The notes below the pieces were generated by a model, which saw only the letters and a program-made list of their open reading frames with translations, was not told where the DNA came from and made no database searches. 10,414 bases of DNA from Synergistales bacterium (GTDB taxonomy: Bacteria; Synergistota; Synergistia; Synergistales; Aminobacteriaceae): the NCBI GenBank assembly GCA_025997935.1, contig BNVG01000071.1, positions 1 through 10,414 on the forward strand. The letters are read 5' to 3'. Shown here piece by piece: positions 1 to 10,414 of this stretch (positions are counted from its first letter, which is position 1; every line of letters starts with the position of its first letter). Made by a program: the position numbers and the translations under genes.

Positions 1-240
1 ATCGAACTCACGAAGCCTTGCCTCCTGAGCTATTCTCTCAACACGAGCGCGCCCTATTACAAGCTCACCCACAAGGCTCATCAGCTTGTCTAAGCGCCCT
101 ATGTCAACTCGCACGGTCTGATTGACCTTTTTCGCCTCCGCCGCTTTTGCCGGAGCGACGGCAACCGGCGCTACAGGATCGGCTTTTGGATGCGTAGCCA
201 CCGGAGCCTTAACTTCCGCCACAATCTTTTCTTCATGTTT
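1..240 (-). pseudogene. cheA: Inverted CheA fragment: P2-P3 linker and start of P3 dimerisation domain
   Basis: Read on the minus strand from 240 to 1, all 80 codons are open and run off the window edge. The first ~40 residues are a low-complexity Ala/Pro/Val/Lys linker. Then come QTVRVDIGRLDKLMSLVGEL and VIGRARVERIAQEARLREFD, the hallmark first helix of the CheA P3 dimerisation domain. This is exactly the part of CheA that should lie upstream of the plus-strand fragment beginning near 240, but it points the other way. About 65-70 residues of P3 (second helix and entry to P4) are found on neither strand here and would have to lie left of base 1. The identification of the fragment is firm. Whether the inversion is biological or an assembly/amplification chimera cannot be told from this window. 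The exact breakpoint is uncertain by a few bases around 231-240. Confidence 0.88.
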
Positions 241-1121
241 TGGAAGGACAGGATACCGAACTTGATCGTACCGTTATAGACGAAATAGGGGATCCTATGG
301 TTCACCTTATCCGCAATTCGCTTGATCACGGAATCGAGACGCGTGAAGACCGTCGTAAAGTCGGCAAACCAGAGAAGGGTACGCTCAAGATCGCGGCCTA
401 TCAGGAGGGCAGCGGCGTCATTATTGAGGTCATGGATGACGGTAAGGGTATAGATCCCGAAAAGGTCAGGACTAAGGCTTTAGACCGTGGAATCATCACA
501 GAGGAAGAAGCCGCCGCCCTGTCTGACGAGGAAGCTATTCAGCTGTGCTTGTTGCCGGGGTTCAGCATGGCCGAGAAGATAACTGATATATCCGGACGCG
601 GCGTTGGTATGGACGCCGTAAAGACGAAAGTCGAGACTTTGGGCGGTCAGCTTGATATGGTTTCTAAGGTCGGACAGGGGACTAATATTTATATCAGGTT
701 GCCTTTGACTTTGGCTATCGTACTTTCTCTCTTGATTAAGGTCGGAGACGAGACTTATGCCATTTCTCTCGAGAACGTAGAGGAGACTATTTTGGTGAGG
801 CGCGACAATATAAAAACAGTTCATGGTTCGCCCGCCACTCTTTTGCGCGGAGAAGTGCTTTCATTGAGCGATCTCGGCAATGTTCTTGGCACGGTGGTCG
901 AGAGAGACCACAGAGACGAGTATCCTGTTGTTGTTGTCAAAATGGGAAAGAACAAGATAGGCTTTATCGTCGACGAGCTTATAGGACAGCAGGAAATCGT
1001 CATTAAGTCGCTTGGACGTTTCCTTTCCAAGATAAGGGGAATCGCCGGCGCTACGATTCTCGGCGATGGAAACGTCGCCTTGATATTGGATGTCGTGTCT
1101 TTTTATTCGATGAAGGGTTAA
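240..1121 (+). CDS. cheA: Chemotaxis histidine kinase CheA, C-terminal part (P4 ATPase + P5 CheW-like), 5' end lost at inversion
   Basis: CheA phosphorylates CheY and CheB in response to receptors; P4 binds ATP and P5 binds CheW and receptors at the cytoplasmic array. Counting from 240, the protein shows the N box (HLIRNSLDHGIE, residues 22-33), G1 (DDGKGID, 66-72), F box (GFS, 107-109), G2 (GRGVGMD, 119-125), G3 (GQGT, 145-148) and a P5 domain from about 157 to 290. The reading frame before 240 hits a stop at 210-212. TTG at 240 has no ribosome site in front, so it is simply where the CheA homology resumes (VLEGQDTELDRTV), not a real start. The P1 phosphorylation domain, P2 and P3 are missing in this orientation, so as shown the gene cannot make a working kinase. 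It ends 12 bases before cheC, and no cheW lies between them. Confidence 0.93.
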   Translation: MEGQDTELDRTVIDEIGDPMVHLIRNSLDHGIETREDRRKVGKPEKGTLKIAAYQEGSGVIIEVMDDGKGIDPEKVRTKALDRGIITEEEAAALSDEEAIQLCLLPGFSMAEKITDISGRGVGMDAVKTKVETLGGQLDMVSKVGQGTNIYIRLPLTLAIVLSLLIKVGDETYAISLENVEETILVRRDNIKTVHGSPATLLRGEVLSLSDLGNVLGTVVERDHRDEYPVVVVKMGKNKIGFIVDELIGQQEIVIKSLGRFLSKIRGIAGATILGDGNVALILDVVSFYSMKG

Positions 1122-1133
1122 GAAGGAAGGAAA

Positions 1134-1778
1134 ATGCTGGATCTAAGCTCGTTCAATAACTTGCAATTGGACGCTATTCGTGAGGTCGGCAATATAGGGA
1201 CGGGCAATGCGGCGACGGCTTTGTCGAAGCTTTTGGCGTGCATGATTGAGATGGATGTTCCAAAAGCCGACCTGGTTTCTATTTATTCTCTGTCAGAGTA
1301 CTACGGAGATCCTGATTCCGTTGTTGCGGCCGTTTTTGTACGCTCTTTCGGAGAGTTTGGGTGCAGTTTGATTTTTATTCAAGAAGAAGAAGACGCTGGC
1401 TTGATGGTGGATCTTTTGCTGAAACAGCAGTTTGGGGATTCTGTTCCGACGAACCTTCAGCCCGACATGAGAGACAGCGCCCTTACGGAGGTAGGAAACA
1501 TCATTTTGAGTTCTTTCCTGAACGCTGTAAATCTGCTGATTGGAACCCAACATCAGATTTCGGTGCCTGGTGTGGCTCATGATATGTTGGCAGCTATTCT
1601 TGATGTGGTCGTGTCTATTTTTGGCCAGATGGGAGATATGGCGCTAGTTGTCAATACACAGCTTCGATTGGGCGCTTCTTTGCAGAATGAGGAGAATAGG
1701 ATTATATCAGGGAATATTGTCATGTTGCCTGACCCTGACGCCCTTGAACTCCTTCTGAGAAAGTTGCAGGTACTTTAG
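1134..1778 (+). CDS. cheC: CheY-P phosphatase CheC
   Basis: CheC removes phosphate from CheY-P and, in complex with CheD, links CheY-P level to receptor adaptation. The 214-residue protein has both pseudo-symmetric active sites of the family pattern D/S-x3-E-x2-N-x22-P: D13, E17, N20, P43 in the first half, and S115, E119, N122, P145 in the second. Both sets are complete, which suggests an active two-site phosphatase like Bacillus or Thermotoga CheC rather than a degenerate paralogue. The length is normal for the family. The ATG is preceded by a strong GAAGGAAGG ribosome site and lies 12 bases after cheA; the stop is 2 bases before cheD. FliY and CheX share the fold, but FliY carries an extra C-terminal SpoA domain and CheX is shorter with one site, so CheC is the best call. 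Confidence 0.95.
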   Translation: MLDLSSFNNLQLDAIREVGNIGTGNAATALSKLLACMIEMDVPKADLVSIYSLSEYYGDPDSVVAAVFVRSFGEFGCSLIFIQEEEDAGLMVDLLLKQQFGDSVPTNLQPDMRDSALTEVGNIILSSFLNAVNLLIGTQHQISVPGVAHDMLAAILDVVVSIFGQMGDMALVVNTQLRLGASLQNEENRIISGNIVMLPDPDALELLLRKLQVL

Positions 1779-1780
1779 TC

Positions 1781-2269
1781 ATGGAAAATACTTACCATGT
1801 AGGCATGGCTGACTTGGTAGTGGTCAGCGCCCCGGCGGTGCTGATTACGCTTGGGTTGGGTTCCTGTATTGGGCTTGTCATTTTCGACACGATGGCCAAG
1901 GTTGCCGGTATGGCGCATATTATGTTGCCCGATAGTCGCGGCACAAAGGTTATCGAAAAAGTTGGAAAATTTGCCGATACCGCCGTTCCGACGGTTATAA
2001 ATGAAATGATCAAGAAAGGCGCCTCTAAAAACCGCATGAAGGCGAAAATAGCCGGTGGCGCTCAGATGTTTGCTTTGCCCGGTGTAGCTACGGATTTTCT
2101 TTCTGTTGGCGTACGCAATGTCAAAGAGACCACGAGTATGTTACAAAAATCTGGTATATCCTTGGTGGCGTCAGATACGGGCGGAAACAAGGGCCGAACG
2201 GTTGAATTTTCGACCACGACGTGGATGCTGGCCATCAAAACGCTGGGTAAGGGCAAAACAGAGATTTAG
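1781..2269 (+). CDS. cheD: Chemoreceptor glutamine deamidase CheD
   Basis: CheD converts specific receptor glutamines to glutamate and is held and stimulated by CheC. The 162-residue protein carries the catalytic triad with the spacing known from Thermotoga CheD: T23, C29 (in LGLGSCIG) and H46 (in GMAHIMLP). It also has the conserved KIAGGAQMF segment at 89-97 and GGNKGRTVEF near the C-terminus. The length matches the family. The start lies only 2 bases after the cheC stop, so translational coupling to cheC is likely and fits the CheC-CheD partnership. All catalytic residues are present, so the protein should be active. Confidence 0.95.
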   Translation: MENTYHVGMADLVVVSAPAVLITLGLGSCIGLVIFDTMAKVAGMAHIMLPDSRGTKVIEKVGKFADTAVPTVINEMIKKGASKNRMKAKIAGGAQMFALPGVATDFLSVGVRNVKETTSMLQKSGISLVASDTGGNKGRTVEFSTTTWMLAIKTLGKGKTEI

Positions 2270-2305
2270 GTTTAAGCAAGCAGGATTAACAGGGGAGGTG
2301 TATTC

Positions 2306-3058
2306 TTGGATTCAGGAACGCCGGATATGGAGCAGTGGCGTGAATATGCTGAGAATCCGACCGCTGAGCTAAAGGAAAAAATCGTAAAAAGATACCTCCC
2401 CCTTATAAAATACGTGGTCGGTCGGATGGCTGTATCAGCCCCTTCGGGGCTTGACTATGAAGACATGTTGAGTTTTGGGGTTTTCGGGCTTCTTGACGCC
2501 ATCGACAGATTTGACATTTCTAAGGGTTTTTCCTTTCAGACTTTCGCGGTGCCGCGCATTAGAGGCGCCGTGTTGGATGAGTTGCGTAAATATGACTGGA
2601 TATCTAGAACGGGTCGCGGCAAACTGCAAAAACTAAATAAGGCTATCGAAAAAGTACTGCGTGAAAAAGGCAAGTTGCGCGATGAATGGGTTATACAAGA
2701 AATGGGCGTAGATGATAAAACTTACAGGGAGTCTCTTGAGTTAGCCAGCCGTAGTTATATAGTCTCTCTGGACGAGGTTATAGCGCTTGAGGACGGCGAC
2801 GTCAGTTTGGATGGGCTGATAGCTGATGAATCAGAGGGCGTTGATTTTGCTCTGGAGCTTCAGGATGACGCGAAATGTATTATGGACGCGCTTATGCAGT
2901 TGCCGGAGCGTGAGTTGCAAGTCATTTCTTTTTATTATTATGAAGGACTTACCCTGAAAGAGATTGGGCGGGTGCTTGGAGTGACTGAATCGCGTGTTTC
3001 GCAAATTCACGGCGCGGCATTGGCGACGCTCAGAACATTGATCGCAAATAAAAGCTGA
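2306..3058 (+). CDS. fliA: RNA polymerase sigma-28 factor (FliA/SigD/WhiG type)
   Basis: This sigma factor directs RNA polymerase to late flagellar and chemotaxis promoters. The 250-residue protein has region 2 at about 25-95 (LPLIKYVVGRM; DYEDMLSFGVFGLLDAIDRF; FQTFAVPRIRGAVLDELRK), region 3 at about 97-165, and region 4 at 197-247 (LPERELQVISFYYYEGLT, then a helix-turn-helix with LGVTESRVSQIH). Region 1 is essentially absent, as is normal for this group. I chose the TTG at 2306 because AGGGGAGGTG lies 5 bases upstream; the first in-frame ATG (2327) has no comparable site. The cheC-cheD neighbourhood matches Bacillus sigD. No anti-sigma factor FlgM is visible in the window, so its control must be encoded elsewhere. 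Confidence 0.93.
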   Translation: MDSGTPDMEQWREYAENPTAELKEKIVKRYLPLIKYVVGRMAVSAPSGLDYEDMLSFGVFGLLDAIDRFDISKGFSFQTFAVPRIRGAVLDELRKYDWISRTGRGKLQKLNKAIEKVLREKGKLRDEWVIQEMGVDDKTYRESLELASRSYIVSLDEVIALEDGDVSLDGLIADESEGVDFALELQDDAKCIMDALMQLPERELQVISFYYYEGLTLKEIGRVLGVTESRVSQIHGAALATLRTLIANKS

Positions 3059-3067
3059 AGGAGATGG

Positions 3068-4669
3068 ATGACCATGGCCGACGATACACTGAAAATAGAG
3101 GCTGATTCTGGTGGTATTTATCTGACGCTGGTGTCTGATGAAATTTCTTTGCCGGCGGTCATGCGGTTTTTAGAAAGACAGGGGGTTCGTAAGTATAACG
3201 CCAAGGCGGTTGAGGAGTTGGTGCGGCAAAAAATTCGTACGCGGCAGAAAATCGCCGAGCGAAATGTCGTGGACGAGAGAGACGCGGTTATCGGTGTACA
3301 AATCGCTAAAGACGGCCTTAGCGCGACCGTGACTCTGGAGCCTCCTTTTTTCACCAAGCCTTGGCCAAGCGCTCAGGATATAGAGGACACCCTTACGCAA
3401 AAAGGCGTAACATTTGGCATCGACAAAGAAGCGATAGCGAATTTACTGTCTTTGAGGGCGACGGGCGACGCCATTCTTGTCGCCAAGGGAGAGGCGCCCA
3501 AAAACGGAGCGAACGCGCGTATCGAATTGATTCTCGACCCCGACAAAGTAAACGAACAAGAAGCCGAACAAACTACCGAAAAAATCGACTATCGCACAAG
3601 AAGCGTATTCTTAAATGTGCGCACGGGCGATAAAATAGCCGTAAAACATCAGGCCACGGAGGGACAAGACGGCACTTCGGTGCTTGGCGTTTTATTGAAA
3701 GCTGTGCCCGGTAAGGACATTGGGTTTTCGGTGGGTAGCGGTCTTGAGGTTTCTGAAGATGGACTGACGCTTTCCGCCTTGCTTGACGGGCGCCTTTTGA
3801 ATAGGGATAAAAAACTTATGGTTTTGCCTGAACTCGAAGTCAACGGCGATGTTGACTTCGGCGTGGGCAACATCAATTTTACCGGCTCCGTTAAAATAAA
3901 GGGCGCTGTGCGCGACGGCTTTAGCGTTGTGGCGACCGGCGACATTGAAATAAGCGAGGTGGTGGAAGGGGCCCATATCGAGACCGCGAGCAATGTAACT
4001 ATCGGCGGCGGCGTTCGTGGAATGGGCAAGGGCAAGATACTGGCCGACGGCACGATAAAGATGGGCTTTGCCGACCAGGCGTATTTACGTAGCAGGGGAG
4101 ATATTGAGGTTAAAAACGCCATTTTGCACAGCGAGGTGGTAGCCCAGAACAACGTAACCGTCATGGGCGGGTCGAAGGGTCAGATTGCCGGAGGTAAAGT
4201 TCAGGCCGGCATGGAGGTTATATGCCAGACTCTCGGCAGCGAAATGGGAACAAGGACGGAAGTTATCGTTGGCCTCCCGCCCGAGCAGGTCGAACGTCGC
4301 AAGGAGCTTCAGACCGTGTTGGCTCAGAACAAAGAAGAAAATGAGAAAATCGAGGCCAATCTTGTTTTTCTTAAAAAATTAGAGCAGGCTGGCAAATTAG
4401 ACGACGAAAAGCGTCAGATAATGGTTAAACTCATGCAGTCAAAGTTCAAGCTCCAGGCGTCGCTCAAGTCTACGCAGGAAGAGTTGCAGGAGCTTGAGGA
4501 GCGCCTCGAACTCGGCAAAGCCAAAGGCGTGGTTCGCGTAAAGGGCGTATGTTATCCGGGAGTCAATATAACGATAAGGGGCGTGTCTTACGCCGTGCAG
4601 TCTCCGTTCAAGTTCGCGTCTTTCTCGTATGTGGACGGAGAAGTTAAGATGAAGTCTTACGACGCGTAG
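3068..4669 (+). CDS. fapA: FapA family polymerisation-type protein (DUF342)
   Basis: The 533-residue protein fits the FapA/DUF342 family, often encoded beside motility and sigma-28 genes. The biochemical role of this family is poorly known; it has been linked to flagellar assembly and cell-surface functions. The layout is an alpha/beta N-terminal part (about 1-250), then a repetitive Gly/Val/Ile-rich stretch (about 258-392, with units such as GDVDFGVGNINFTGSVKIKG and GDIEISEVVEGAHIETASNV) typical of a right-handed beta-helix. A charged coiled coil follows (about 405-484), then a short beta-rich tail containing GVCYPGVNITIRG. The start is either ATG 3068 or ATG 3074; the GAAGGAG site just after the sigma stop would suit 3074 slightly better in spacing. 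It follows the sigma gene by 9 bases, so it is very likely in the same operon. No signal peptide is seen, so it is probably cytoplasmic. Confidence 0.85.
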   Translation: MTMADDTLKIEADSGGIYLTLVSDEISLPAVMRFLERQGVRKYNAKAVEELVRQKIRTRQKIAERNVVDERDAVIGVQIAKDGLSATVTLEPPFFTKPWPSAQDIEDTLTQKGVTFGIDKEAIANLLSLRATGDAILVAKGEAPKNGANARIELILDPDKVNEQEAEQTTEKIDYRTRSVFLNVRTGDKIAVKHQATEGQDGTSVLGVLLKAVPGKDIGFSVGSGLEVSEDGLTLSALLDGRLLNRDKKLMVLPELEVNGDVDFGVGNINFTGSVKIKGAVRDGFSVVATGDIEISEVVEGAHIETASNVTIGGGVRGMGKGKILADGTIKMGFADQAYLRSRGDIEVKNAILHSEVVAQNNVTVMGGSKGQIAGGKVQAGMEVICQTLGSEMGTRTEVIVGLPPEQVERRKELQTVLAQNKEENEKIEANLVFLKKLEQAGKLDDEKRQIMVKLMQSKFKLQASLKSTQEELQELEERLELGKAKGVVRVKGVCYPGVNITIRGVSYAVQSPFKFASFSYVDGEVKMKSYDA

Positions 4670-4710
4670 ATAGTTTTTAGGATGTCAATTTTGAAAGGTT
4701 TGGTGAGCTT

Positions 4711-5040
4711 ATGCTTCAGCCCGTCAATCTTCAACTTGCTCATTTCAACGTAGAACACAGCGCACAAATTTCAAAAGACGCAATGGCCGCGGCTCAGCAA
4801 ACTGGGCAAACGCAGGAGACGGTTAAGGAAAATGTGATGCGCGCCCAGAGAGTCGAGGCCAGTATAGCGGCCGCCGAAGCGCAAAAGATAAAGAGCAAAG
4901 AGGAAGACGAGAAGCGTCGCGGGAATCAGCGGCAGGCGTCTTCTGGGCGTGATGAAAACGAAGATAGCGCCGAGGCTGACAACGCTAAGACCACCCCCCA
5001 CACCGGTACGCCAGTCAGGAGTTTTGAGTTTTACGCATAA
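4711..5040 (+). CDS. Small charged alanine-rich protein of unknown function in the motility operon
   Basis: I do not recognise a domain. The 109-residue product begins MLQPVNLQLAHFNVEHSAQI. It has a predicted helical Ala/Gln/Glu/Lys-rich middle (about 18-70, with EASIAAAEAQKIKSKEEDEK), a disordered Arg/Gly/Ser/Asp/Glu stretch (70-98) and a short hydrophobic end (RSFEFYA). There is no signal peptide or membrane segment. A modest ribosome site (GGTGAG, plus GAAAGG further up) precedes the ATG. It lies 41 bases after fapA and 20 before the next gene, all co-directional. Short coiled-coil proteins of this style are often found at the ends of fla/che operons in Clostridia-like bacteria, which suggests a motility accessory role; that is inference. 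Confidence 0.7.
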   Translation: MLQPVNLQLAHFNVEHSAQISKDAMAAAQQTGQTQETVKENVMRAQRVEASIAAAEAQKIKSKEEDEKRRGNQRQASSGRDENEDSAEADNAKTTPHTGTPVRSFEFYA

Positions 5041-5060
5041 GTTTTTAAGGAGGCTACGCT

Positions 5061-5609
5061 GTGGCGGTATCGAACAACAGTCTTGGGTATCTTGTGGTAG
5101 ATGGGGCCGAGGGGCTTTTTAGAGGGGCTTCTTTGGTGGTGGATTTTAGGGGTATTCCTATGGATTTTCGCTATACGGATCCCATAAGGCCGACTCGTCT
5201 TGAAAAAATTCTTTACGGCAACGCCCTTGAGGTCTATCTGCGCGAGGAGTTGATTTTAGAGAGCCTGATAGGCGCTGCGGAGATGAAGCCGTCTATCTGG
5301 GTTTGCAGGGAAGCTGATCTTTTGCCGCCGCTGAAGAGCATCACAAGAGGAAAAGTTCTTTTTCTGGCTCCGTCAAATCACTCTCCGCTCGAAGCCGCCG
5401 GAAACGTGGAGGCCACCGGCGAGGACTTGAGCTATATGGTTCAGGCGGACTCGGTAAGCGCGCCGCTACGCGCTTCGTTCCCCGAGGGTACAAAAGAAGA
5501 CGACGTCAAGCAGATAGCGGCCATGTTGGTGGACGCGGCCAAGACTATGGAGCTGCTCGAACCGTTCGGGCGGATACAAAAGGCTTTGACTTCTTTGGGC
5601 GAAGAATAG
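5061..5609 (+). CDS. Conserved-looking protein of unknown function, last gene of the motility block
   Basis: The 182-residue product starts at GTG 5061, with a strong AAGGAGG site 7 bases upstream that fixes the start. It opens with a beta-rich segment (LGYLVVDGAEGLFRGASLVV), followed by the motif FRYTDPIRPTRLEKILYG at 37-54 and a helical segment YLREELILESLIGAAE at about 59-74, then mixed alpha/beta sequence. There is no signal peptide or transmembrane helix. I cannot name the family, although the FRYTDPIRPTRL motif looks conserved rather than random. It follows the small charged protein by 20 bases and is the last plus-strand gene before a candidate terminator. A role linked to motility is suggested only by position. 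Confidence 0.75.
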   Translation: MAVSNNSLGYLVVDGAEGLFRGASLVVDFRGIPMDFRYTDPIRPTRLEKILYGNALEVYLREELILESLIGAAEMKPSIWVCREADLLPPLKSITRGKVLFLAPSNHSPLEAAGNVEATGEDLSYMVQADSVSAPLRASFPEGTKEDDVKQIAAMLVDAAKTMELLEPFGRIQKALTSLGEE

Positions 5610-5626
5610 TCGAGCTTTGTTGTTTT
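5585..5626 (+). terminator. Candidate terminator at the end of the motility operon, possibly bidirectional
   Basis: An imperfect hairpin overlaps the stop codon at 5607-5609. The inner stem TTCTT/AAGAA (5591-5595 with 5602-5606) has a 6-base loop, and the outer stem 5585-5590 pairs with 5609-5614, including two G-T pairs and a 2-base bulge. The T-rich run 5616-5626 follows. On the opposite strand the same hairpin is followed by CCTTTT, so it could also stop transcription from the minus-strand gene on its right. The stem is weak, hence the modest confidence. Confidence 0.4.
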
Positions 5627-5659
5627 GATAACTCAGGATTTGAAAGACTATTTTTGCCG

Positions 5660-6067
5660 TCATTTTTTGGGGCGTTTGAACGTAAACAACCTCCCTGTCA
5701 TGTTGGATACGCCGAAAATATCTTCCACAAAACGCAAGATAGAGACATACCCTATCAGAACCCAGATGAAAGTCACGGGCTCCAAGCTTTTTGTAGCCGG
5801 CAGCCTGACTTGTTCGAGTAAGGGGTTTCGTTTTTCGAGACACTCTTCAAGTTCTCTGAATCAAACCATAAAAATAAGCGGCTCTAAAATAAGAAAATAT
5901 GCGCCGGGCGAGATAAAAACCCATACATTCTCAAAAATAAAAATAAAAATCTCAGAAAACACAAAACACGCTATACTCATGCCGCAGGAAAGAACCAACC
6001 GCCTAAAATGGAAGACGGAGCGCCCCAAAACAAGCGGAGAAATAATTTTAGCCTGGTTTGGCCCCAT
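5660..6067 (-). pseudogene. Small membrane protein gene interrupted by an in-frame TGA (antisense to neighbours)
   Basis: On the minus strand an ATG at 6067 opens 68 codons to a TGA at 5863-5861. The same frame then continues for 66 more codons to a second TGA at 5662-5660. The first part has two hydrophobic stretches, about residues 24-45 (LVLSCGMSIACFVFSEIFIF) and 48-68 (VWVFISPGAYFLILEPLIFM). The second part starts with an amphipathic segment, FRELEECLEKRNPLLEQ, then a third hydrophobic stretch (VTFIWVLIGYVSILRFVEDI) and ends in the basic tail FKRPKK. Joined through the TGA it reads as one three-helix membrane protein; a Trp at the stop would give a natural membrane-edge sequence. TGA ends other genes here (fliA, the S1 gene) and never occurs inside them, so code reassignment is unlikely. 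Decay or a sequencing error is more likely. No clear ribosome site precedes the ATG. The family is not recognised. A plus-strand frame over the same bases is Lys/Ser-rich, as expected for the antisense of a Phe/Leu-rich gene. Confidence 0.5.
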
Positions 6068-6089
6068 TATCGACGAAGCTGTTGTAAAA

Positions 6090-6134
6090 TTGACACTAAA
6101 TAAAAGACAGGGTACACTTTTAATCTGGTATAAT
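6090..6134 (+). promoter_or_regulatory. Promoter region for the S1-domain gene, two possible overlapping promoters
   Basis: TTGACA (6090-6095) is followed after 17 bases by TACACT (6113-6118), a good housekeeping sigma match. A second -10 box, TATAAT at 6129-6134, is perfect and carries the extended TGn element at 6126-6128, so it needs no -35. Either would start transcription about 120-140 bases before the ATG at 6263. The position, downstream of the end of the motility block, fits a separate transcription unit. Confidence 0.6.
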
Positions 6135-6262
6135 CCTCAGAGTAGACGTTTTGATGCAAAAGGTTTGTTTTTGTGCAGACGCCTTAGCTCTGATAAGGAT
6201 AAAAGTTTTGAGTGGCGCTGGGTGTAGCTTATTTTTATATTATTGGGAGGCTTGCAACAGGA

Positions 6263-6688
6263 ATGGGCGAGGAGAAGAAGGCAGTGGCTTCTTCAGTGGG
6301 AGTCGGCGATCTTGTCGAGTGCGTAGTGGAGCAGATTATGCCTTACGGGGCTTTTGTCAGGCTTCCGACGGGGCAAAAGGGGATGATTCATATCTCCGAG
6401 CTGTCGTTTAGCTTTGTCAAGAAAGTCGAGGACATTCTGACTATGCAGCAGAATGTCAAGGCGAGAGTTATTAAAATCGACGAAAAGGGCCGCATAGACC
6501 TGTCGCTGAAAAAAACGGAAGAGCGCCCTGTCATAGTTGCGCCCATTGTCAGAGACGACAAGGACAACTTTGAGAAAAAGATGGCGTCTTTCCTTAAACT
6601 GAGCGAATCCAAAATAGCGGACCTCAACAGTAAAATGAACTCTTCCAAGTCAGGGAAGAAAAAGCCGAGCAGCAAGCCGAAAAATTGA
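6263..6688 (+). CDS. S1-domain RNA-binding protein (YabR-like)
   Basis: The 141-residue protein has one S1 OB-fold domain at about 12-84 (VGDLVECVVEQIMPYGAFVR, KGMIHISEL, ARVIKIDEKGRIDLSLKK). This is the canonical pattern of general RNA-binding S1 proteins such as YabR of Firmicutes and the C-terminal S1 of Pnp. A linker with predicted helix and a very basic tail (SGKKKPSSKPKN) follow, suited to RNA or ribosome contact. I prefer ATG 6263, with GGGAGG 12 bases upstream. A GTG at 6212 in the same frame would add 17 hydrophobic residues not expected for this family. It has its own promoter, about 130 bases upstream. The stop TGA (6686-6688) overlaps the TTG (6685) of the next frame. The RNA target is unknown. 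Confidence 0.88.
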   Translation: MGEEKKAVASSVGVGDLVECVVEQIMPYGAFVRLPTGQKGMIHISELSFSFVKKVEDILTMQQNVKARVIKIDEKGRIDLSLKKTEERPVIVAPIVRDDKDNFEKKMASFLKLSESKIADLNSKMNSSKSGKKKPSSKPKN

Positions 6689-7311
6689 GCTGTTTGCGCG
6701 TGGCGTCTCAAGGGAGAGATATTCTCCCTTTTTTTTATGAGCCGGCGACGCCCGCCGACATTGCGTCGGCGGCTCGACAGCTGTCGAAGCGCAAGTTTGA
6801 CGCTGCGCTTATTTTGGGTGTGGCGAGGCGCTGTTCTTTCGGACGGCCTGTCGTCATTGTATGTTCTCCCGTTCAGATTGGCAGACTCGAACCCTTCCCG
6901 TTTCCCACTTCATTTTGGCTTACATGTCCCTGGCTCGTCCTTTCAGCCGCTCAGGCGGAATCAAAAGGGGGCGTCGACGAGCTTGAGCATTGGATAGAGC
7001 GCAACGCGCCCAAGCGATGGATCCCATATAATATACTTCACCAAAGGCTCCGCCTGTCGCTCTTGCCAGAGCCGCAGTTAGAATTTTTGCGGCGCTTTCA
7101 TCCCAAACTTTTCAGGCGCGTCCGCGAGACGGGCGTCGGGGGGTTGAAGTTTGGCGCGGAAGACGGGCGGGAGGGCGTCGTTCGTGTTAAGTGCCTGCAT
7201 TTGCAGACCGCCTCATGGCTGGCGCTTCGCAAGCATCCGGGGGGAGCGTGGCTAAAGGCGCGCGCTTTGGGCGCGGAGTGCGGGGGAGAGATGGCGGCGC
7301 GATGCGTGTAG
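6685..7311 (+). CDS. DUF501 family protein
   Basis: The protein matches the DUF501 pattern: an N-terminal segment ATPADIASAARQL, then GVARRCSFGRPVVIV (45-59), FPFPTSFWLTCPWL (71-84), a helical middle, and the diagnostic VKCLH (168-172) followed by a Pro-Gly-Gly segment. The family function is unknown. In Actinobacteria (for example Mycobacterium Rv1024-Rv1026) DUF501 sits with a DivIC/FtsB-like gene and a Ppx/GppA phosphatase. In Firmicutes an S1 gene like the one upstream here sits beside divIC, so the S1-DUF501 pairing fits an old shared neighbourhood. The start is uncertain. Within this frame only TTG 6685, TTG 6694 and GTG 6700 precede the domain, none with a ribosome site; TTG 6685 overlaps the S1 stop and suggests coupling. 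ATG 6737 is out of frame. All these starts place a terminator hairpin within the gene. The 208-residue length includes about 18 residues before the conserved part. Confidence 0.8.
   Translation: MSCLRVASQGRDILPFFYEPATPADIASAARQLSKRKFDAALILGVARRCSFGRPVVIVCSPVQIGRLEPFPFPTSFWLTCPWLVLSAAQAESKGGVDELEHWIERNAPKRWIPYNILHQRLRLSLLPEPQLEFLRRFHPKLFRRVRETGVGGLKFGAEDGREGVVRVKCLHLQTASWLALRKHPGGAWLKARALGAECGGEMAARCV
6710..6736 (+). terminator. Intrinsic terminator after the S1 gene, inside the next reading frame
   Basis: AAGGGAGA (6710-6717) pairs perfectly with TCTCCCTT (6723-6730) around the 5-base loop GATAT, and eight Ts in a row occupy 6729-6736. This is a clear rho-independent terminator shape, 21 bases after the S1 stop. 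It also lies inside codons 9-18 of the DUF501 frame if that begins at TTG 6685, so it may attenuate rather than fully end the transcript. Confidence 0.82.
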
Positions 7312-7353
7312 AGACGCAACATATGAAAAATAATTCGAAGGGATTGAATAAAT

Positions 7354-8763
7354 ATGTGGAAGGGACGTTTTGAGGAGGATACGGCGCAGGTTGTGCAGAA
7401 GTTCACGCAGTCTCTCGACCTCGACTGGAGGCTGTATAAACACGACATTCAAGGGAGCGTGGCCCACGCCCGCATGTTGGAGAAAGTCGGTTTGCTTACC
7501 GACGCGGAGGCCGTTCAAATTATCGACGGCCTAAAGACCGTCTTAGCTGAAATAGAGAGCGGGGAGTTCAAACCGTCCGAAAAACTCGAGGACGTGCACA
7601 TGAACATCGAAAGCCGACTGACGGAGCTGACGGGGAACGCGGGGGCAAAGCTCCACACCGGCAGAAGCCGCAACGATCAAGTGGCCACGACTGTGCGTCT
7701 TTACCTCCGCGAGCGGTTGTCGAATTTGCGCTCGTCGCTGTTGTCTCTTCTCGGCGCGTTTTTGGACAGGGCCAAAAAACACCGGCTTGTCATAATATCG
7801 GGTTATACACATCTTCAGCAGGCGCAGCCCATATCTTTGGGACACTACTGGATGGCGTGGTTTGAGGCTTTCCTGCGCGACTATGAGCGGTTAGAGTTTG
7901 CGAGTCGCTCGCTTGACGAGTGTCCGCTGGGGAGCGGCGCTTTGGCCGGCTCCACGCTACCGCTCGACCGCGATATGACCTGTTGGCTTTTAGGTTTTGA
8001 CCACCCCACGCGCAACAGCTTAGACACCGTAGCTCAGCGCGACTATATGTCCGATTATCACCATTTCGCGTCGCTTTTTGCCGTACATGCCTCTCGTATG
8101 GCGGAGGATTTGATAATTTACGCCACGCAGGAGTTTGGCTGGCTGAAGCTACCCGATTCTTTCTGCACGGGATCGAGCATTATGCCTCAGAAAAAAAATC
8201 CGGACGTACTCGAGCTGATTCGCGGCAAAACCGGGCAGGTTATCGGACATACGGTGGATTTGCTGATTATGACCAAGGGGCTCCCCATGACTTATGACCG
8301 CGATCTTCAGGAGGATAAGCGCGGGCTTTTCGCGTCGCTCGATACCTTAGACGGCATACTTGAGGTGCTACCGCCGCTCATATCAAAGACAGAGGTTGAC
8401 GCACAGGCCGCGCGCTCCGCGCTTGAAAAAGGATTAGGCTTGGCTTTGGCCACGGACGTCGCAGAGTATCTTGTGTTGAAGGGCGTTCCCTTCCGCGACG
8501 CGCACTGGAAGGTTGGAAGGGTCGTTCACTACTGCATAGAGAACGCGAAGCCCTTGACGGGTCTGAGCCTTGATGAATGGAAAGAGCATATCCCCGAGGT
8601 TGAGGCTGATGTTACTGATATACTTTCTCTCGAGAAGAGCGTGGCGAGACGGGGTACTTTCGGCGGCACGGGCTTTGAGCAGGTGGCACTACAAATAGAG
8701 CGGGGCGAAAATCTCCTAAAAGTCAAAGAAGCGGAGTCGGAGGCCGCGGCGGCACGGATATAG
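7354..8763 (+). CDS. argH: Argininosuccinate lyase
   Basis: ArgH splits argininosuccinate into arginine and fumarate, the last step of arginine synthesis, in the cytoplasm as a homotetramer. The 469-residue protein is full length. It begins MWKGRF, typical of the family, and carries the conserved HTGRSRNDQV (101-110), the THLQQAQP segment with the catalytic His (H153), and the superfamily signature GSSIMPQKKNPDVLE (273-287), which contains the mobile-loop catalytic serine. YDRDLQEDK (314-322) is also typical. ATG 7354 has AAGGGA 10 bases upstream. The gene follows DUF501 by 42 bases with no visible promoter, so it may share its transcript. No other arginine gene is present, so argG must be elsewhere. 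Confidence 0.97.
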   Translation: MWKGRFEEDTAQVVQKFTQSLDLDWRLYKHDIQGSVAHARMLEKVGLLTDAEAVQIIDGLKTVLAEIESGEFKPSEKLEDVHMNIESRLTELTGNAGAKLHTGRSRNDQVATTVRLYLRERLSNLRSSLLSLLGAFLDRAKKHRLVIISGYTHLQQAQPISLGHYWMAWFEAFLRDYERLEFASRSLDECPLGSGALAGSTLPLDRDMTCWLLGFDHPTRNSLDTVAQRDYMSDYHHFASLFAVHASRMAEDLIIYATQEFGWLKLPDSFCTGSSIMPQKKNPDVLELIRGKTGQVIGHTVDLLIMTKGLPMTYDRDLQEDKRGLFASLDTLDGILEVLPPLISKTEVDAQAARSALEKGLGLALATDVAEYLVLKGVPFRDAHWKVGRVVHYCIENAKPLTGLSLDEWKEHIPEVEADVTDILSLEKSVARRGTFGGTGFEQVALQIERGENLLKVKEAESEAAAARI

Positions 8764-8851
8764 AGTTATGGCACAGCCGGTTTTTTGATGGTTGCTTTAT
8801 TCAAAATATTCGGATATTCTATACAGAAATAGCGAGGAAGGATGACGCGCC

Positions 8852-10414
8852 ATGCCGAAAACGACTCCCCGAACCAGTAAAATCAGCTTCAAACTATTGT
8901 CGTTCGTTTTCGCGAGCGTCGTGATTATTTTATCCGCCCTCTCTTACTCGGATTATATTTTCATAATGTCCATGCAGACTTCCGCCATGGAGGAAAAGAC
9001 CATTCTGGTCAATAAACTCATTTCATCACAAATCGACGCCAAGGGTTTGTTGTCCTATATCGACGCCCTCAAAAGTGATGAAGAATTCAAAAAACGCCAA
9101 GTAGAGTTCAATGAGGCGAAGCGTAGGCTGTTTGAAATTCAAAATGAAAAAGGCTACAACAAAAAAGACCCGGAAACCGTACACCTTCAGAGGGTCTTGC
9201 AGGAGGTTATCGACCGGTTCCGCGCGAGGGTTGCGGGATTCAAAGACGATAACTACCGGCGCATTCAAGAGTGGGTCAACGAACTGCGCCTGATGAGCGG
9301 CGCCAAGTATCTCTACGTCGTCGCGGATACGGGTGTCGACGGGTTTTTCTCGTACCTTTTCGACGCTCATACGGCGGATGAGGCTCTGGATTTAGACAGG
9401 GACGACATAGGTTCCATAGCGCCGGACGAGGATTTTCCCTATTCGGAAATCGTGTACGCCACAGGGCAACAGGTCGCATACGCCGAGTATTACGAACACG
9501 ATATTTATGGTACGCTCTATTCCTCCTACTCTCCGCTGCTAAATGACGAGGGGGAGATCGTCGCCTTCACAGGGACGGACTTCGATATAAACGAACTGAG
9601 GGAGAACGTTTCCAAACTTAGGTGGCGAACCATCGAATCGCTACTGGTCGTCGTCGGGCTTTTTATGGCGATACTTCTCCTGATTATGCGGCGTCTCGTC
9701 ATTCGGCCTATCGGCGCTCTAACGGAGACGGCTAATAGCATCTTCCGCGGCGAGGTGTCCACCGGGATCCCGGCGTGGCTCTTGCAAAAATCCGACGAGA
9801 TGGGCGCTTTGTCGCGCGCTTTAGACGCCGTGACGAGCACTTTCCGCGATATGCTCTCGAGCACAAAACAAACCCTTGAGGCCGTAATCTCAGGCCATCT
9901 CGACGCCCGCAACGACCCAGACGCCTTTAAGGGAGATATAGCGACGGTTGTCCGACAGATAAACGAGACGTTCGACATCATGGCGACATATTCTGAAAAG
10001 GCGCAGAGCGCGAGCAAGGCGAAAGGGGAGTTCCTGTCCCGCGTGAGCCATGAACTCAGGAGCCCAATGAACGTCATCGTCGGCATGGCCCGTTTGGGGC
10101 TGAAGAAAGAAAGCGCGGCCGTGAACAGCGACGCCGCCGCGCGGTTCGAGAATATTTTAGCCGCGTCAACGCATCTTTTGGGCATCATCAACGACGTATT
10201 AGACATGTCCCGCATCGAGTCGGGCAAGATTGAGATTCGCCGCGCTCAGTTCAATATCCGTGATGTAATTCTCGACTGTTACAATCTTTTAGCGCCCCAG
10301 ACGGAGGAGCGGGGGCTTCTGTTTGAATATTCCGTAGCGCCCGACGTCGCCCTCGACGTCATTGGCGACGCAGACCGCATTCGTCAGGTTATCATCAATC
10401 TTCTCACGAACTCG
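8852..10414 (+). CDS. Membrane sensor histidine kinase, 3' end beyond window
   Basis: From ATG 8852 the frame is open for 521 codons to the window edge. Residues 1-14 are basic, and a membrane helix spans about 15-38. A large extracytoplasmic domain runs about 39-262, with a helical first part and an alpha/beta part (KYLYVVADT, YSSYSPLLNDEGEIVAFTGT) that looks like a Cache/PAS-like sensor. A second helix (about 263-279) leads into HAMP (RRLVIRPIGALTETA, about 280-335) and a linker. HisKA follows with the phospho-acceptor H400 in FLSRVSHELRSPMNVIVGM. The sequence ends inside the ATPase N box (DADRIRQVIINLLTNS, about 507-521). The H box has Ser where Thr is most common. GAGGAAGG (8834-8841) lies 10 bases before ATG 8852. 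The ATG at 8842 is in another frame and stops after 12 codons. The HisKA subtype often belongs to hybrid kinases with receiver domains, which would lie past the edge. The ligand is unknown. Confidence 0.92.
   Translation, partial: MPKTTPRTSKISFKLLSFVFASVVIILSALSYSDYIFIMSMQTSAMEEKTILVNKLISSQIDAKGLLSYIDALKSDEEFKKRQVEFNEAKRRLFEIQNEKGYNKKDPETVHLQRVLQEVIDRFRARVAGFKDDNYRRIQEWVNELRLMSGAKYLYVVADTGVDGFFSYLFDAHTADEALDLDRDDIGSIAPDEDFPYSEIVYATGQQVAYAEYYEHDIYGTLYSSYSPLLNDEGEIVAFTGTDFDINELRENVSKLRWRTIESLLVVVGLFMAILLLIMRRLVIRPIGALTETANSIFRGEVSTGIPAWLLQKSDEMGALSRALDAVTSTFRDMLSSTKQTLEAVISGHLDARNDPDAFKGDIATVVRQINETFDIMATYSEKAQSASKAKGEFLSRVSHELRSPMNVIVGMARLGLKKESAAVNSDAAARFENILAASTHLLGIINDVLDMSRIESGKIEIRRAQFNIRDVILDCYNLLAPQTEERGLLFEYSVAPDVALDVIGDADRIRQVIINLLTNS

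What the first reader, a model, noticed from the sequence alone, without database searches (positions are those of the whole stretch)
1..260. cheA is split by an inversion: P3 on the minus strand, P4-P5 on the plus strand
The minus strand of 1-240 encodes 80 uninterrupted codons of the CheA linker and the start of P3; at 237-240 the plus strand abruptly becomes CheA P4. The two pieces are adjacent parts of the same protein facing each other. The geometry is exactly what a simple inversion gives: the upstream end of the flipped segment (the linker) abuts the P4 junction. About 65-70 residues of P3 are missing and should lie, still inverted, just left of base 1, giving a flipped segment of roughly 450 bases. 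Three explanations are open: a reversible switch turning the kinase on and off (chemotaxis phase variation), a one-off mutation, or a chimera from genome amplification or assembly, especially if base 1 is near a contig end. The intact coding on both sides means the event is recent or artificial.
Basis: partly seen in the sequence, partly recalled or inferred. Interest (0 to 1): 0.72.

Follow-up and report, generated by a model that had tools for sequence, protein, structure and literature searches.

The report
Amplification chimera at a contig end
The apparently flipped piece of the chemotaxis gene cheA is almost certainly a copying artefact of DNA amplification at the end of an assembled fragment, of a kind seen in other fragments of the same assembly, and not a genetic switch.

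Summary
Minus-strand 1-243 encodes the CheA linker and the start of P3; plus-strand 237-1121 encodes P4-P5; both fit GTTTTGG at 237-243. Base 1 is the end of contig C71 in an unnamed 333-contig, 70.5%-complete assembly. The two nearest relatives found (Synergistales, 84-85% DNA identity) have an uninterrupted cheA, with 147 bases (49 residues) between the pieces, not 65-70 residues. The pieces are colinear in 79 of 79 scorable related loci.

Of 42 sampled contigs of this assembly, 8 have an end that folds back on the same contig (two are almost complete palindromes); 0 of 92 contigs of three related genomes do. A threonyl-tRNA-synthetase-type gene at the end of C61 is split the same way, and its flipped piece runs back into its own arm, which a local inversion would not give. 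Overlap (3-7 nt) and distance (about 390 nt) fit published phi29 amplification chimeras (overlap peak 6 nt; distance peak 250-300 nt, range to about 5,000). No inverted repeat of 8 nt or more links the breakpoints. Raw reads were not available; amplification is inferred.

The parts
1..243 (-). CheA linker and start of P3 (dimerisation domain), inverted relative to the rest of cheA; runs off the contig end at base 1
   Evidence: Pfam H-kinase_dim E 3.7e-13; aligns to L004 5850-5617, minus, 79% over 246 columns
237..243 (.). Overlap GTTTTGG compatible with both parent sequences; the inferred mispriming point of the chimera
   Evidence: Relatives' minus parents read GTTTCGG (L004) and GTTTAGG (L005); their plus parents read GTTTTGG and GTTCTGG
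237..1121 (+). CheA P4-P5 (ATPase and CheW-like domains), native orientation
   Evidence: Pfam HATPase_c and CheW; 94% protein identity to L004 and L005
1134..1778 (+). cheC, the next gene downstream, as in L004
   Evidence: Pfam CheC E 1e-16; the same order in L004
1781..2269 (+). cheD
   Evidence: Pfam CheD E 1.5e-32

Best explanation
The junction at 237-243 is an inverted (fold-back) chimera made in vitro by multiple displacement amplification, at the end of a contig. Proposed steps: a growing strand that had copied cheA from P5 upstream to the start of P4 was displaced. Its 3' end (CCAAAAC) annealed to a complementary stretch of up to 7 bases about 390 bases away, in the linker region of a nearby displaced strand. 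It was then extended in the opposite direction through the linker and P3. The assembler extended the contig about 236 bases into this product and stopped. Shown: the junction geometry, an overlap that fits both parents in relatives, the contig end, fold-backs at other contig ends of this assembly, and uninterrupted cheA in relatives. Inferred: that this assembly comes from phi29-amplified DNA, and that the organism's own cheA is intact.
For: The window is the whole contig C71, so base 1 is a contig end. 8 of 42 sampled contigs of this assembly have an end forming an inverted repeat with the same contig, against 0 of 92 contigs of G018, G006 and G003 (Fisher p 5.7e-5; by ends tested 8 of 84 against 0 of 150, p 2.2e-4). 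C62 and C66 are palindromes with arms of 5738 bases (100%) and 5471 bases (99.98%) and loops of 220 and 212 bases. At the end of C61 a gene whose G018 relative has the Pfam domains of a threonyl-tRNA synthetase is split as cheA is, and its flipped piece then re-enters the arm: residues 262-269 are present on both strands. C97 (residues 118-150) and C87 (residues 190-215) also carry residues on both strands. Published MDA chimeras: 85% inverted, inverted ones mostly under 10 kb apart, complementary bases up to 21 nt at the join (PMC1855051, part 1 of 4 read); distance peak 250-300 nt in a range of 0 to over 5,000, overlap peak 6 nt, most 5-8 nt (PMC4595205, abstract and passages). Here the distance is 381 nt in L004 coordinates, about 390 with this species' longer linker, and the overlap 3-7 nt. 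cheA is colinear in 79 of 79 scorable loci and in the best 120 listed proteins. The DNA of L004 from cheB to P2 has no counterpart in this assembly, which uneven amplification would explain.
Against: The contig stops 147 bases before the point where a fold-back would re-enter its own arm, so the window itself does not show re-entry and the junction alone fits an inversion equally well. No reads could be mapped. The own-species sequence of both parents at the junction is unknown. Four of the eight positive contig ends are weak or could be ordinary repeats (see Tried and rejected). The control contigs come from genomes whose preparation is also unknown.
Confidence: 0.95

Rival explanations
1. 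A one-off inversion of about 390 bases in the chromosome of this cell or lineage, which breaks cheA.
For: The geometry at 237-243 fits a simple inversion equally well, and both coding pieces are free of stops.
Against: It needs a coincidence: the breakpoint lies about 237 bases from a contig end in an assembly where 8 of 42 contigs fold back at an end. Sister cases that run further (C61, C97, C87) re-enter their own arm, which a local inversion does not do. All 79 scorable relatives are colinear.
Confidence: 0.03
2. A reversible invertible switch that turns the CheA kinase on and off (chemotaxis phase variation).
For: Only the opposed orientation of the two pieces.
Against: No inverted repeat of 8 nt or more links the two breakpoints in L004 or L005, and none lies at the junction in window 1-600; some imperfect pairs in L004 touch one breakpoint, none joins both. 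No recombinase domain in the 13 window ORFs scanned against Pfam; the whole genome was not searched for recombinases. Colinear in 79 of 79 scorable loci. The same kind of split occurs in a threonyl-tRNA-synthetase-type gene, where an off state would be hard to explain.
Confidence: 0.01
3. An assembler misjoin of genuine reads, without a chimeric DNA molecule.
For: A short overlap at the junction and a fragmented assembly.
Against: An overlap of at most 7 nt is too short for ordinary assembly overlaps (recalled knowledge, not tested). The contig-end fold-backs point to chimeric molecules.
Confidence: 0.01

Closest known systems
Inverted chimeras of phi29 multiple displacement amplification (PMC1855051, part 1 of 4 read; PMC4595205, abstract and passages)
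   Same: Opposite-strand join of two nearby segments, short shared overlap at the junction, distance in the hundreds of bases, several instances in one data set.
   Different: Seen here in an assembled contig and not in a read; the amplification history of the sample is inferred.
Invertons / invertible phase-variation elements (recalled; only a search listing with abstract starts was seen)
   Same: A short DNA segment in opposite orientation.
   Different: No inverted repeat linking the breakpoints, no recombinase in the ORFs scanned, no second orientation seen, and the breakpoints lie inside a coding region that is colinear in relatives.

Membership tests
MDA inverted chimera | Two nearby segments (<10 kb) joined in opposite orientation | tested here: met
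   Opposite strands, 381 bases apart in L004 coordinates
MDA inverted chimera | Short complementary overlap (2-21 nt) at the join | tested here: met
   Tested on relatives: the two parents share GTT in L005, GTTT in L004, and 7 positions if the variable third positions are ignored; own-species parents unknown
MDA inverted chimera | Product folds back and re-enters its own arm | tested here: inconclusive
   Not reached in the window; seen in sister contigs C61, C97 and C87
MDA inverted chimera | Further chimeras in the same data set | tested here: met
   8 of 42 own contigs, 0 of 92 control contigs
MDA inverted chimera | DNA was amplified with phi29 polymerase | not testable with these tools
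Invertible phase-variation element | Inverted repeats at both breakpoints | tested here: not met
   No pair of 8 nt or more links the breakpoints in L004 or L005, none at the junction in window 1-600; the second breakpoint of this species is off the contig
Invertible phase-variation element | Adjacent site-specific recombinase | tested here: inconclusive
   None in 13 window ORFs scanned against Pfam; the sequence left of base 1 is unknown and the genome was not searched for one
Invertible phase-variation element | Both orientations present in a population | not testable with these tools
   No reads; 79 of 79 scorable related loci are colinear

The most novel reading that the evidence does not exclude
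A reversible flip of about 390 bases inside cheA, from the linker to the P3/P4 border, that switches the chemotaxis kinase off and on in this lineage by a recombination that needs only a few bases of homology.
Probability: 0.01. Interest if true: 0.7.

Novelty: not a real feature. Interest (0 to 1): 0.05.

Why it matters
As biology it does not: cheA is most likely intact in the organism. As a caution it is useful: facing gene halves within a few hundred bases of contig ends in this assembly should be read as fold-back chimeras first, and its palindromic contigs (C62, C66) count genes twice.

Tried and rejected
Looked for the rest of cheA elsewhere in the assembly, to see the native join or a second orientation. 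The family search found only the window's P3; the DNA search found the two window pieces and C102; the protein search found the two window pieces and one weak match on C4 (28% identity, E 1.1e-4, residues 515-593), which was not followed up. The assembly is only 70.5% complete, so absence there is weak evidence. Among the 120 proteins listed, none was closer to the window's P4-P5 piece than 94.5% (P0002) and 93.9% (P0001), so no same-species intact copy was found. Inverted repeats as recombinase sites: in window 1-600 only three pairs of 8-9 nt, none at the junction. Literature searches for cheA phase variation by inversion (listings with abstract starts only, 10 of 11 and 10 of 23 papers shown) showed nothing that bears on this locus. 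Searches for the relatives' source paper (listings only) and taxonomy look-ups did not identify how the relatives were sampled.

Limits of the fold-back count: C61 and C92 rest on 30-base repeats (96.7% and 93.3%); C74 (73 bases, 97.3%) and C95 (132 bases, 99.2%) have loops near 1.4 kb and could be ordinary repeats. The strict core is 4 of 42: C62, C66, C97, C98 (arms of 83 bases or more, at least 99.9% identity, loops under 300). C61 is supported independently by the protein comparison. C87 also folds back, but 41 bases from its end, so it is not among the 8. The window's own contig C71 is one of the 42 and not among the 8. Thresholds were set after a first look at the same own contigs, so p-values are a guide only. 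For G018, right ends of stretches cut at 20 kb were not tested: ends tested were 84 own, 71 G018, 39 G006, 40 G003. Inverted pairs anywhere (30 bases or more, 90% or more) numbered 18 in the 392,470 own bases and 19 in 1,027,872 G018 bases.

Full report
What is there. The first 243 bases of the window encode, on the minus strand, the CheA linker and the first half of the P3 dimerisation domain. From 237 the plus strand encodes P4 and P5 to the stop at 1121. cheC, cheD, a sigma-70-type factor and a FapA-domain protein follow on the plus strand.

Comparison with relatives. The nearest loci found, L004 and L005 (records titled Synergistales bacterium; 94% protein identity over P4-P5, 84-85% DNA identity over window 237-7074), carry one uninterrupted cheA; L004's CheA has the five domains Hpt, P2, P3, P4 and CheW-like in order. 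In L004 coordinates the window joins 5850-5617, reversed, to 5998 onward. Of 80 related loci kept from 510 matches, 79 held both pieces; in 79 of 79 these lie on one strand, 78 with a 150-base interval and one (L040) with 140. L010 was not scorable: no match to the N-terminal piece, and its P4 match starts at base 33 of the held sequence. As computed, the frame between the pieces was open in 76 of the 79; the three exceptions (L040, L059, L069) were not followed up. The best 120 of 7,971 proteins from the large collection are all colinear with a 50-residue interval; they were found with an intact CheA as the query, so they are not an unbiased sample. That the window's organism is a Synergistales bacterium is inferred from these relatives.

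The assembly. The genome has 333 contigs, 2.25 Mb and 70.5% estimated completeness. No further piece of CheA P1, P2 or P3 was found in it. Of the L004 stretch 3000-6100, which holds the end of a PilZ-domain gene, cheB and most of cheA, this assembly matches only the PilZ gene, on contig C102, and the two window pieces; C102 ends within the PilZ gene. cheB was sought as DNA only. Uneven amplification would leave such a gap, though any fragmented assembly can have one.

Sister artefacts. I fetched 42 contigs of this assembly (C60-C100 and C102; 392,470 bases, 7.3-11.9 kb each) and tested each end for an inverted match of 25 bases or more within the same contig (at least 93% identity, loop up to 3 kb, reaching within 10 bases of the end). 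8 of 42 contigs were positive (C61, C62, C66, C74, C92, C95, C97, C98); of the controls, 0 of 52 (G018), 0 of 20 (G006) and 0 of 20 (G003) (Fisher p 5.7e-5). The limits of this count are set out under Tried and rejected; the strict core is 4 of 42. C62 and C66 are almost entirely palindromic. A comparison with 984 ORFs of G018 (193 with a match) found three own contigs with facing halves of one gene: C61 (threonyl-tRNA-synthetase domains), C97 (no Pfam match) and C87 (a DcuC-type carrier). The window itself was not detected in that scan, because G018's cheA contig (C69) was not among the stretches fetched; given L004's CheA the same comparison shows it. The reciprocal scan of G018 with own ORFs gave one pair, inside the DcuC-type ORF of L212: it is the C87 case seen from the other side, not an inversion in G018. 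In C61 the minus piece covers residues 262-673 and the plus piece 118-269, with contact over about 4 bases; residues 262-269 occur on both strands, so the molecule turned round and began to copy itself back. That is the signature of a fold-back and not of a local inversion. C97 (relative only 45-76% identical) and C87 show the same.

Mechanism. Lasken and Stockwell (PMC1855051; part 1 of 4 of the text read) report that 406 of 475 MDA chimeras (85%) from one E. coli cell were inverted, mostly with segments under 10 kb apart, with complementary bases at the join in 93.5% of inverted cases under 10 kb. A later study of human reads (PMC4595205; abstract and passages) gives a distance peak at 250-300 nt, within a range to about 5,000, and an overlap peak at 6 nt, most 5-8. 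ChimeraMiner (PMC6515389; passages) reports inverted chimeras as on average 91% of single-end chimeras. The window junction (381 nt in L004 coordinates, about 390 here; 3-7 nt overlap) sits inside these ranges. That the sample was phi29-amplified is an inference from the fold-backs.

Rivals. A switch lacks repeats that link the breakpoints and any recombinase in the 13 window ORFs scanned. A one-off inversion cannot be excluded from the window alone but is made unlikely by the contig-end position and the sister cases. Verdict: an artefact, explained by known chemistry.

Noticed in passing
L123 (G000:C62) 1-5738 and 5959-11696; L127 (G000:C66) 1-5471 and 5684-11153: Two contigs of the same assembly are near-perfect palindromes with loops of 220 and 212 bases. 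Their arms encode a helicase-like protein and a weak radical-SAM match below the curated cut-off (C62), and proteins with Big_2 and HTH matches (C66).
   Followed up: partly
L122 (G000:C61) 10154-11820: A gene related to one with threonyl-tRNA synthetase domains is split into facing halves at the contig end, with re-entry into its own arm.
   Followed up: yes
L167 (G000:C87) 42-940; L177 (G000:C97) 2-1406: Facing halves of a DcuC-type carrier gene and of an unassigned gene at contig ends.
   Followed up: partly
window 2306-10414: The rest of the contig looks ordinary: sigma factor, FapA-domain protein, S1-domain protein, DUF501 protein, argininosuccinate lyase and a histidine kinase cut by the contig end; three ORFs (4711-5040, 5061-5609, 5625-6227) without a Pfam match; no tRNA and no fold-back at the right end.
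   Followed up: partly
L040, L059, L069: In these three of 79 relatives the stretch between the CheA pieces was not open as computed; a frameshift, a sequencing error or a match-edge effect.
   Followed up: no
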